Below, in pieces: positions 3,588-14,940 of a stretch of DNA of 64,000 nucleotides. Below the pieces are notes generated by a model. The model saw only the letters and a list, made by a program, of their open reading frames with translations. It was not told the origin of the DNA and did no database searches. This DNA is from Acidaminococcus intestini DSM 21505 (GTDB lineage: Bacteria; Bacillota; Negativicutes; Acidaminococcales; Acidaminococcaceae). A program made the position numbers and the translations under genes. Location: assembly GCF_000425045.1 (NCBI RefSeq), contig NZ_AULA01000005.1, positions 1 through 64,000 on the forward strand, written 5' to 3'. Numbering within the stretch: position 1 is the stretch's first letter; each line of letters opens with the position of its first letter.

Positions 3588-4930
<1,343 letters not shown>

Positions 4931-4967
4931 GATTTTTTGTTATGGACTTGTTAAAAAGTATGAATGC

Positions 4968-9092: not shown

Positions 9093-9335
9093 TAAAAAAA
9101 CGCCCCTCATCATGAGGGACGAAATGATTCGCGGTACCACCCTTATTCCCATCCGGATGAATGGGCACTCAACGTACTGACATACGCGTTTCCACTAACG
9201 GGGATCAATCGTCAGGACTTACTGGATTCAGTCCTGCTCCTCAGGGAGGATCTTCGTCTGCGGCCAGATTCCGGCTTTCACCAAGCGCCGGCTCTCTGTA
9301 ATCTGGTGGAACAGAGTACTTGTTCCCGTCATTGG
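9093..9335 (-). promoter_or_regulatory. T-box leader controlling ilvD and the BASS transporter
   Basis: The minus-strand leader ends with the T-box sequence AATAAGGGTGGTACCGCG, then a terminator stem (CGTCCCTCATGATGAGGGGCG) and seven T. Stem I has GGGA/TCCC at its base, an AGTA bulge, a CTG/CAG pair and the GCCGGCG...AAGCCGG apical region. The specifier loop reads ACGAAGATCCTCCC. The stretch ATCCTCCCTGA is shared with the ilvC leader, so ATC (isoleucine) is the likely specifier, not proven by this alone. It makes ilvD and the transporter respond to uncharged tRNA. Confidence 0.9.
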
Positions 9336-9365
9336 ATTTGTAACCTATTTGAGTTGACATGTGAA

Positions 9366-11950: not shown

Positions 11951-12000
11951 AAAATCCCTGGCACGCAGTTTCGTGTGCCAGGGATTTTTTAACTGTCTTC
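11939..12000. terminator. Shared bidirectional terminator built from the 3' ends of two convergent genes
   Basis: A perfect 26-bp inverted repeat surrounds a 10-nt loop. Its outer parts are coding: the M20 gene ends with GAAGACAGTTAA on the plus strand and the MocR gene ends with the identical bases on the minus strand, both encoding EDS-stop. The inner part carries A6/T6 flanks and a GC-rich core, so it can terminate in both directions. Confidence 0.88.
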
Positions 12001-13341
12001 AAGGGCTTTTTTTAGGGCTTCAATACCGGGAGCAATGTCTTCTTTGGCAATTCCTGCAAAAGATAGGAGAAATTCCGGTTTTTTGCTGTCTGTGGAAGAT
12101 GTAATGGGGGTGATTTTGATGCTGTGCTGGCTTGCTTTTTCAGCAAGTGCTTGGGCGCTCATTTCATAGGAAAGGGCGATATGAAGGTCAAGGCCTGATT
12201 CAAGGCTGAGGAATGTAACTCTTTTGCCAAAGATGCGCTGTAGGGTGTCTTGGAGAAGGACGCTTTTTTCCCGATAGCGATTGCGCAGTTTTTTTACGTG
12301 TCGCGTTAAGTGGCCTTCCTCAATATAGGATGCAAGGGCCAGTTGCTCTACTGTGGACGAAGTCTGGTTGTAAAAAGGGGCTATTTTTTGAAAGCGGGGA
12401 AGAAAGCTTTCCGGCAGGACCAAATAGCTGATACGCAGGCTTGGCAGCATGGTTCGGGAAAAGGATCCGACATAGATGATGCGCTCACGATTGCCAAAAC
12501 TGTGTAGGGCTGGGACCGGATGATGGAGATAGCGGAATTCCCCATTGTAATCATCTTCGAGGAGATAGACCCGTTCAAATTGTGTTGCGACAATGAGGTT
12601 GCTTCGTTCCTTTTCCGAAAGGGCCCGCCCTTTGTAGGGGTTTGTGGGACTGACAACGAGCAGTTCCGGCCATGATTTGGAGGGAACAGCGGGGTCATAG
12701 CGATCCGTGGTCCATCCCATGAGGTGAAACATCCATTCAGCTTGGGGAAAGCCGGGAGCTTCGAAACTGACTCGTTTTTCCTCGACAGGAAGCAGAGGGA
12801 TGAGTATGGACAAAAGGGACTGGAGACCGGCGCCGACAAGGATCTGTTCCGGGCGGCAGACAACTCCCCTTGATTGGTAGCTGTAGCGGGCAAGGACTTC
12901 CCGGAGACGAGGTTCCCCTTGGGGATCGCCGTAACCTGAGAGCGTATCAGGACTGTGCAGGACACGGCTGATGGCGCGGCGCCAGAGCACGGTGTCAAAA
13001 GTGGTCGTGTCAATGTAATGGTTGGCAAAATTAAAGGAAGGACGGTGGAAAGACTCCTCCTGCAAGGGGGGCATTTCCACTGGTACTGCCGGTTTGGTGA
13101 GGGTAATGCGGAAGCCGCGGCTTGGCAGGTTCTGTACATATCCTTGATCGATGAGGATCTCATAGGCTGCTTCCACGGTTGTGCGGCTCACTTTGAGGTC
13201 TTTTGTGAGTTTGCGGATGGAAGGCAGCATGTCTCCGCCCTGCAGATGATCTTCCTGAATCTCATCCCGAAAGTAACGGGCCAGTTGTTTATAGAGGGGC
13301 TGTCCATCTTTTTTTGCCTTAAAATTAAAGGTTGTTGTCAT
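11989..13341 (-). CDS. MocR-type regulator (GntR helix-turn-helix plus aminotransferase-like domain)
   Basis: A 450-aa transcription regulator. Residues about 10-75 are a winged helix of the GntR type (PLYKQLARYFRDEI, then MLPSIRKLTKDLKVSRTTVE). Residues about 115-440 are a fold-type I aminotransferase domain, with VVSPTNPYKG and EDDYNGEFRY. The usual PLP lysine motif SFSKT reads SFSRT here (codon CGA), followed by the normal LPSLRISYLVLP. The Schiff-base lysine therefore seems replaced by arginine. Whether PLP can still act as effector is unclear. It is divergent from a secreted protein gene, a possible target. Its 3' end forms a shared terminator with the M20 gene. Confidence 0.88.
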   Translation of the reverse strand: MTTTFNFKAKKDGQPLYKQLARYFRDEIQEDHLQGGDMLPSIRKLTKDLKVSRTTVEAAYEILIDQGYVQNLPSRGFRITLTKPAVPVEMPPLQEESFHRPSFNFANHYIDTTTFDTVLWRRAISRVLHSPDTLSGYGDPQGEPRLREVLARYSYQSRGVVCRPEQILVGAGLQSLLSILIPLLPVEEKRVSFEAPGFPQAEWMFHLMGWTTDRYDPAVPSKSWPELLVVSPTNPYKGRALSEKERSNLIVATQFERVYLLEDDYNGEFRYLHHPVPALHSFGNRERIIYVGSFSRTMLPSLRISYLVLPESFLPRFQKIAPFYNQTSSTVEQLALASYIEEGHLTRHVKKLRNRYREKSVLLQDTLQRIFGKRVTFLSLESGLDLHIALSYEMSAQALAEKASQHSIKITPITSSTDSKKPEFLLSFAGIAKEDIAPGIEALKKALEDS

Positions 13342-14080: not shown

Positions 14081-14129
14081 TCTAGTTTTGATCTGTCAGT
14101 GGTCAGCAATAACATCATATGATGAAGGA

Positions 14130-14170
14130 AGGACCAGGAAAATTCCTTGATTTTCCTGGTCCTTGTTTGT
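14130..14170 (+). terminator. Intrinsic terminator upstream of the group II intron
   Basis: AGGACCAGGAAAA pairs with TTTTCCTGGTCCT around a short loop, followed by TGTTTGT. It ends the secreted-protein transcript and abuts the 5' end of the intron. Some group II introns (class C) insert just after such terminators. Confidence 0.85.
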
Positions 14171-14725
14171 ACGCCCGGCATGGGCGCATTCTTAAGGGTG
14201 AAAGTCCCTAGACTGCCTTAGTCGGGGGAAAGTCATAGCCGAACACCAAAGGAGACATCGTGAGGTGGAATCTGAAGGAAGGGGCAGGCAAATTTCTGAC
14301 CTGACAAAGAGAATCCGCATAAGGCCAATTTGAGATGGATAAGGTCGCCAAACAGATTAAAGTCCCATAGCGATTTGGAATCCCAAAGGGTAGATGCGGC
14401 AGGTGAAGGGAGAAAAAGAGTGCGTTCTTACCCGGGGAGGCCTCACGAACATGGCTGGATCCATGAAGTTGGCGGCCATGGCCCAAACAAGATTTAGCGT
14501 GAGGAGTCAGCTGAGACCATAGTACTGGATGGTCTATAGCCCGTCTAGGAAGAACCGAATTTTAGGAGATGTCAGTTAATGAAGGGAGTCAAGTGGGGAA
14601 CTAAAATCAGAAAACTTCATAGAGAAGGTTGCCCGCAAAAAGCAGCTGCCAAGCAGCAAGGATATGCGGGAACGCCTATCCCTGTAAGGACTGCCGAACA
14701 CAACGACATCATTGCAAACTTGTGA

Positions 14726-14854
14726 GCGGACAGTCTGTTGGGGCAAATCCTGACGCGGGACAACCTGAATGCCGCATACCACGGAGTAAAAGAAATAGCC
14801 CGTCATGGTTACATAACCATGACGGGCTATTACAAGCACGTTTATGAAAACTAG
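14726..14854 (+). pseudogene. Group II intron reverse transcriptase/maturase, N-terminal remnant
   Basis: The peptide ADSLLGQILTRDNLNAAYHG followed by VK matches the conserved start of intron-encoded reverse transcriptases (block RT-0, usually LL..IL...NL..AY..VK.NKG). The frame then runs 20-odd unrelated or C-terminal-like residues to a stop, so the catalytic blocks are absent. A TGA immediately upstream also cuts it off from an in-frame ATG at 14579. Confidence 0.7.
14794..14831. repeat. 18-bp inverted repeat with 2-nt centre inside the intron
   Basis: AATAGCCCGTCATGGTTA is followed by CA and its exact reverse complement. It lies where the deleted maturase gene should be and could fold into a very stable hairpin. 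Confidence 0.9.
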
Positions 14855-14940
14855 GAAACCGCCGTGTACCGAACGGTAACGGTACGCGCGGTGGTGTGAG
14901 AGGTGGGGGTTCCACTTGGAAATCCCTTTTACTCAATCGG

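What the first reader, a model, noticed from the sequence alone, without database searches (positions are those of the whole stretch)
14169..14937. Group II intron reduced to a ribozyme shell with a duplicated segment in domain V
Domain I and domain V-like sequences are present, but the reverse transcriptase is cut to its RT-0 block. A 6-nt tandem repeat (ACGGTAACGGTA) enlarges the tip of domain V, and an 18-bp inverted repeat fills the domain IV region. It may be a dead intron, or a non-coding one mobilised by a maturase from elsewhere. Insertion right after an intrinsic terminator resembles class C target choice.
Basis: partly seen in the sequence, partly recalled or inferred. Interest (0 to 1): 0.52.

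Follow-up and report, generated by a model that had tools for sequence, protein, structure and literature searches.

The report
Dead intron keeping an antisense terminator
This is a decayed bacterial group IIC intron that lost its reverse transcriptase gene; the hairpin it keeps appears to be a built-in stop signal on the opposite DNA strand that many related introns carry, and here it may serve the neighbouring metal-transport gene.

Summary
Window 14169-14937 derives from a group IIC (class C) intron: it matches Rfam RF02001 at 116.7 bits, sits 4 nt behind a terminator hairpin, and has lost about 1.1 kb of reverse transcriptase (RT) gene. It is most likely dead. Its 5' end is GUACG instead of GUGCG, domain V carries a private 6-nt duplication, and its substitutions break D1-D3 base pairs as often as chance (8 broken, 8.3 expected), whereas three of four intact relatives tested break far fewer. 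The one close full-length copy in the genome has a frameshifted RT.

The 17-bp inverted repeat is not domain IV filler. It is the end of the RT gene, and on the opposite strand it is an intrinsic-terminator-like hairpin with a T-rich tail. Most Bacillota IIC introns examined have such a hairpin at this place in unrelated sequences: 38 of 59 under a strict test and 50 of 59 under a relaxed one, against 2 and 11 of 59 on the sense strand and 3 and 4 of 21 in other group II introns. Codon-constrained nulls, G.U asymmetry and covariation support antisense selection. In the window it lies 109 nt past the stop of a convergent ZnuA-family gene and may now terminate it. I found no report of this; termination itself is untested.

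The parts
14129..14164 (+). terminator hairpin of the upstream + strand gene, followed by GTTT; the insertion target
   Evidence: fold -26 kcal/mol for 14125-14170; -23.1 for the 36-mer
14169..14937 (+). remnant of a group IIC intron, 769 nt, 5' GTACG, 3' ACTCAAT
   Evidence: RF02001 match; alignment with full-length relatives
14254..14426 (+). domain I region matched by Rfam group-II-D1D4-3
   Evidence: 116.7 bits
14738..14854 (+). 38-codon remnant ORF: RT N-terminus (19 codons) fused in frame to the RT C-terminus
   Evidence: tblastn 84% over residues 1-19 of the C16 RT; reading
14787..14795 (.). approximate deletion junction; about 4 nt of shared sequence (AAAG) inferred from relatives
   Evidence: comparison; inference
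14794..14831 (-). antisense intrinsic-terminator-like hairpin, 17 bp, 4-nt loop, tail TCTTTTAC on the minus strand
14858..14895 (+). domain V
   Evidence: alignment A2, fold
14873..14884 (+). private tandem duplication ACGGTAACGGTA in domain V
   Evidence: absent from 13 of 13 other copies in A2
14905..14926 (+). domain VI stem, less regular than in the intact relative L063
14941..15867 (-). convergent ZnuA-family metal-binding lipoprotein gene; stop codon 3 bases beyond the intron end
   Evidence: Pfam ZnuA 279 bits, NCBIfam

Best explanation
A group IIC retrointron inserted behind a terminator between two convergent genes. It later lost almost the whole RT gene by a short-homology internal deletion, and its ribozyme has since decayed without selection. 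What survives intact is an intrinsic-terminator-like hairpin on the antisense strand. This is a normal part of most Bacillota IIC introns, encoded in the last codons of the RT gene. In intact introns its likely job is to stop transcription that arrives from the downstream side, so that the intron RNA and RT mRNA meet no antisense RNA and a convergent neighbour regains a terminator after the insertion has moved its own about 2 kb away. In this remnant it is the best terminator-like site after the stop codon of the convergent ZnuA-family gene. Shown: the deletion, the neutral decay, and the position, strand bias and codon-independent conservation of the hairpin. Inferred: that it terminates transcription, why it was selected, and that the host now uses it.
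For: Decay: window branch 8 pairs broken of 112 with 26 substitutions, 8.3 expected, P(<=obs) 0.55; C16 8 against 10.2, P 0.21; relatives L063 4 against 9.9 (P 0.005), L117 0 against 5.9 and L121 1 against 11.9 (P < 5e-5). Antisense hairpin with T tail at the RT end: 38 of 59 IIC at <= -15 kcal/mol with >=5 T in 8, sense 2 of 59, elsewhere in the RT genes antisense 25 of 412 windows, other group II introns 3 of 21. With >=4 T and 190 nt: 50 of 59 antisense, 11 of 59 sense, 4 of 21 others. Synonymous-codon null: antisense P<=0.01 in 21 of 45 IIC and 0 of 20 others. Strand-neutral version: 19 of 45 and 0 of 20 at P<=0.01; among the 25 at P<=0.05, 49 antisense-only G.U pairs against 12 sense-only, and >=5 T in the antisense tail of 17 but the sense tail of 0. 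Covariation: 16 double-change cells, 5.6 shuffled, 0 of 500. Named Bacillota plasmids 4 of 5 at <= -18 kcal/mol. Window: -28.3 kcal/mol, tail TCTTTTAC, 109-147 nt past the stop codon.
Against: No transcription data. The window hairpin could have become perfect by palindrome-correcting mutation rather than selection. Only 16 of 49 intact IIC insertions have a convergent first downstream ORF by a crude ORF rule, close to 6 of 20 for other introns, so rescue of a convergent gene cannot be the whole reason. 15 of 45 IIC also reach P<=0.01 on the sense strand, as palindromes must. The loci are related, so counts are not independent. Control L115 also looked unconstrained in the decay test (5 against 5.6). 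L109, an ORF-less IIC intron with intact ends, lacks the element. The mini copy C3 kept a perfect hairpin but lost the T tail.
Confidence: 0.72

Rival explanations
1. The window copy is a living non-coding intron that splices and moves with an RT supplied in trans.
For: Most ribozyme parts are present; a 624-nt ORF-less IIC intron with intact ends exists in another genome (L109); ORF-less bacterial introns usually sit beside related RT-bearing introns (PMC4424553, passages).
Against: GUACG 5' end; duplicated domain V tip; neutral D1-D3 decay; the only close RT gene is in two frames; the other RT is of another type; no second copy of this deletion form in 61, 380 or 63 genomes.
Confidence: 0.05
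2. The hairpin is a sense-strand RNA element of domain IV (RT binding or ribozyme folding), and its antisense T tail is a by-product of A-rich coding sequence.
For: It lies just upstream of domain V; palindromes score on both strands (15 of 45 sense P<=0.01).
Against: Wobble pairs favour the antisense strand 49 to 12 in a strand-neutral choice of hairpins; T tail >=5 in 17 antisense against 0 sense; not at a constant place in 13 Pseudomonadota IIC introns with the same ribozyme plan.
Confidence: 0.15
3. The hairpin in the window is a leftover made perfect by template-switch palindrome correction; it has no role for the ZnuA-family gene.
For: The stem changes that separate the window from its sister copies each improve complementarity, as palindrome correction would give (alignment A3); numbers are too small to show selection; the C3 mini copy also became perfect although its T tail is gone.
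Against: It is the strongest terminator-like site after the gene, which otherwise has none nearby except an antisense domain V hairpin of -17.3 kcal/mol.
Confidence: 0.4
4. The antisense hairpin is a terminator-like decoy or landing site for other IIC introns, which target terminator hairpins.
For: IIC introns insert behind terminators (PMC8919778, passages).
Against: No antisense-nested IIC insertion was noticed in the loci read, but none was systematically sought.
Confidence: 0.05

Closest known systems
Group IIC (bacterial class C) introns
   Same: D1 sequence (RF02001), domain V of the CCGCC...GGTGG type, insertion behind an intrinsic terminator, class C RT in the sister copy
   Different: RT gene deleted, GUACG 5' end, 6-nt duplication in domain V, ribozyme no longer under selection
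ORF-less bacterial group II introns
   Same: RT gene lost, ribozyme domains on both sides kept
   Different: known ones are described beside a related RT that may act in trans (PMC4424553, passages); here the related RT is broken and the ribozyme decays
Bidirectional intrinsic terminators between convergent genes
   Same: palindromic stem with a T run; serves the gene on the other strand
   Different: here the element is coded inside a retroelement's RT gene and faces against it

Membership tests
group IIC intron | class C / D1D4-3 ribozyme sequence | tested here: met
   RF02001 116.7 bits, gathering score 32
group IIC intron | insertion just behind an intrinsic terminator | tested here: met
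   hairpin 14129-14164, intron from 14169
group IIC intron | 5' GUGYG | tested here: not met
   GUACG; the other 9 sequences of A1 have GUGCG
group IIC intron | 3' end AY | tested here: met
   ends AU at 14937
group IIC intron | domain V with catalytic stem and 2-nt bulge | tested here: inconclusive
   stem kept, tip duplicated; RF00029 below threshold here and on the C16 copy
group IIC intron | class C RT/maturase | tested here: not met
   38-codon remnant, no family match
group IIC intron | ribozyme structure under selection | tested here: not met
   8 pairs broken, 8.3 expected
group IIC intron | splicing or reverse splicing | not testable with these tools
   needs RNA work
intrinsic terminator (antisense element) | stable G+C-rich stem followed by a T-rich tract | tested here: met
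   17 bp, -28.3 kcal/mol, TCTTTTAC
intrinsic terminator (antisense element) | transcripts end in the T tract | not testable with these tools
   no transcriptome

The most novel reading that the evidence does not exclude
Bacillota group IIC introns carry a conserved, position-fixed but sequence-divergent intrinsic terminator on their antisense strand, written into the last codons of the RT gene. It insulates the intron from antisense transcription and gives a convergent neighbour a new terminator, softening the cost of insertion behind shared terminators. When the intron dies this element can be kept by the host, as at the ZnuA-family gene here.
Probability: 0.55. Interest if true: 0.65.

Novelty: new variant of a known kind. 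Interest (0 to 1): 0.5.

Why it matters
The intron itself is ordinary debris. The hairpin points to an unnoticed part of one of the commonest bacterial retroelements: a second, outward-facing regulatory signal overprinted on the RT gene. It would help explain how IIC introns live between convergent genes at low cost, and why Bacillota, in which intrinsic termination prevails (PMC8919778, passages), carry so many of them. It can be tested with existing strand-specific RNA 3'-end maps.

Tried and rejected
Trans-mobilised ORF-less family: looked for further copies of the 769-nt form in 61, 380 and 63 genomes (overlapping sets). None was found; the other short forms differ in extent: L109 624 nt, L110 about 384 nt, L140 mini, L129, L111.

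Apparent short copies in G137 (L107, L108) are assembly gaps (runs of N), not deletions.

Domain V duplication as an adaptation: private to one copy; an exact search of viral contigs found nothing.

Enrichment of convergent downstream genes as the reason for the antisense element: not found (16 of 49 IIC, 6 of 20 others).

Literature: searches listed no paper on an antisense terminator in group II introns. PMC8919778 and PMC4424553 have 0 occurrences of 'antisense' (passages read). Robart 2007 and Simon 2008 are not held, so they were not read.

Rows dropped: 14 near-duplicate or broken loci (L034, L064, L113, L142, L166, L168, L169, L171, L172, L178, L181, L184, L188, L206) and L050 (printed as skipped) from the codon tests; one search left out 7 loci without a recognised domain V and 4 with short downstream sequence. 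IIC against non-IIC was my assignment from RT identity and domain V type; the 40 + 20 loci fetched after one search were chosen from its list, not drawn at random.

Full report
What is there. The window carries a 769-nt remnant of a group IIC intron at 14169-14937. Rfam RF02001 (group-II-D1D4-3) matches 14254-14426 at 116.7 bits. The genome (2.28 Mb, 55 contigs) holds one close full-length copy, C16 (85% over the 5' part), and two 3' fragments, C2 and C3. Relatives with RTs about 69-75% identical to the C16 RT occur across the class; 71 of 380 class genomes match the window DNA at E <= 1e-8.

Anatomy. Aligned with C16 and intact relatives, the window intron has everything from the 5' end to the first 19 codons of the RT and everything from the last 15 or so codons to the 3' end. 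The missing stretch is the RT gene itself, about 1.1 kb. The junction joins AAAG to AAAG as far as relatives allow one to tell (inference). The fusion is in frame, leaving a 38-codon ORF without any family match. The domain V duplication ACGGTAACGGTA is private: 13 of 13 other copies in alignment A2 lack it. The three other copies of this genome share a different altered domain V (CCGCCGCGCTT...), so the window copy does not descend from them. The 5' end is GUACG; the nine other sequences of A1 have GUGCG.

Dead or alive. I took the D1-D3 structure from eight outgroup sequences (121 pairs), inferred the state of the window/C16 ancestor, and compared the number of broken pairs with random placement of the same substitutions. 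Window: 26 substitutions, 8 pairs broken, 8.3 expected. C16: 33, 8, 10.2. Controls L063, L117 and L121 broke 4, 0 and 1 pairs against 9.9, 5.9 and 11.9 expected. One control, L115, behaved like the window (5 against 5.6) and may itself be decaying. Both copies in this genome therefore look unconstrained. C16's RT is split between two frames. The genome's other group II RT (C17, 605-codon frame) belongs to an intron with a different domain V type. The dead-intron view is favoured; trans-mobilisation has no support.

Unexplained detail: window and C16 are 96% identical at 14641-14720 but 83-87% in the other segments from the 5' end to 14790. I cannot say whether this is gene conversion or constraint.

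The inverted repeat. The consensus scan flagged it as a terminator on the minus strand: 17 bp, 4-nt loop, tail TCTTTTACTC. In relatives the same place, the last codons of the RT gene, gives an antisense hairpin in which many sense C.A mismatches become G.U pairs. In 19 of 23 copies it is followed by at least 5 T in 8 (the pattern missed two copies, one of which, L115, shows its hairpin). Scanning 20 introns of several subfamilies gave a strong antisense terminator at this place in 18; the exceptions were L051 (weak) and the ORF-less L109. Hairpin sequences differ completely between subfamilies.

Larger test. After a phylum-wide RT search (111 of 398 genomes) I fetched 40 IIC and 20 other group II loci, giving 59 IIC and 21 others with earlier loci. 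Antisense terminators (<= -15 kcal/mol, >=5 T in 8) lie at the RT end in 38 of 59 IIC, against 2 of 59 on the sense strand, 25 of 412 antisense windows elsewhere in the same RT genes, and 3 of 21 others. With a relaxed tail and a longer region: 50 of 59, sense 11 of 59, others 4 of 21. Several misses are RTs with an early stop (L142, L171, L172).

Is it more than coding chance? Shuffling synonymous codons within each gene, the antisense hairpin beats the null at P<=0.01 in 21 of 45 IIC and 0 of 20 others, and at P<=0.05 in 31 of 45 and 4 of 20. With a score that favours neither strand the figures are 19 of 45 and 0 of 20 at P<=0.01. Among the 25 IIC at P<=0.05 there are 49 G.U pairs that exist only on the antisense strand and 12 that exist only on the sense strand; tails with >=5 T are 17 antisense and 0 sense. 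In the window's subfamily, 20 sequences show 16 cells with changes on both sides, 5.6 in shuffles, 0 of 500 shuffles as high, and far less when slid. Related sequences inflate such shuffles, so this is supporting evidence only.

Phylum. Among 22 named plasmid or phage records, 4 of 5 Bacillota introns reach -18 kcal/mol; the fifth is matched in two pieces, so its reading frame appears broken and the region scanned was off its true end. 2 of 2 gut phage scaffolds of unknown host also do. 3 of 13 Pseudomonadota reach -15, at scattered distances (-59, -96, -145) from the stop, and 0 of 2 Bacteroidota (first 14 also). Integron-borne IIC introns lying antisense to resistance cassettes (L227, L229, L243) have no strong element, as expected if it would silence the cassettes (inference).

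At the window site. The intron ends 3 bases from the stop codon of a convergent ZnuA-family gene (279 bits). 6 of 7 genus relatives have a terminator-like hairpin within 140 nt of this gene, 4 of them starting within 35 nt. In the window the strongest is the intron's hairpin at +109 to +147, -28.3 kcal/mol; an antisense domain V hairpin at +48 to +83 scores -17.3. By eye, all four copies in this genome (window, C16, C2, C3) face a convergent gene, but across IIC loci only 16 of 49 do. Host use of the hairpin is plausible, not shown.

Other short copies. Deletion derivatives recur in the class: L109 (624 nt, intact ends, no RT), L110 (about 384 nt), L140 (5' end joined to mid domain V), L129 and L111, most with a few shared bases at the joint.

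Comparison with print. That IIC introns insert behind terminators is well known (PMC8919778 and PMC4424553, passages read). None of nine searches listed an antisense terminator within them; two key papers were not held.

Noticed in passing
14641-14720: 96% identity to the C16 copy against 83-87% in neighbouring segments; gene conversion or hidden constraint unknown.
   Followed up: no
L034 1555-3455: Full-length IIC intron behind the tmRNA (ssrA) terminator with an RT split between two frames; it shares with the window a TGA just upstream of the RT start that L063 lacks.
   Followed up: partly
L036 about 1835-1968: Mini derivative of about 135 nt behind the rplT terminator: first 8 nt of an intron joined by GCCC to the 3' hairpin, domain V and VI.
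   Followed up: partly
L109 676-1335: ORF-less IIC intron with intact 5' end, domain V and VI; possibly a living trans-spliced or mobilised form.
   Followed up: no
L140 736-855: IIC mini derivative in which the 5' 60 nt join the middle of domain V, behind a terminator like that of L109.
   Followed up: no
L141 1100-1155: A free-standing terminator-like palindrome in a same-family genome whose arms match the window hairpin nearly exactly, with no intron beside it.
   Followed up: no
L209, L212, L214, L215: Non-IIC group II introns with antisense hairpins near the RT end (3 of the 4 with T tails at -15 kcal/mol); perhaps a second lineage with the same device.
   Followed up: no
9112-9341 and 4692-4937: Two T-box leaders on the minus strand.
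   Followed up: no
11989-13341: MocR/PdxR-type transcription factor gene on the minus strand, above the NCBIfam cut-off.
   Followed up: no
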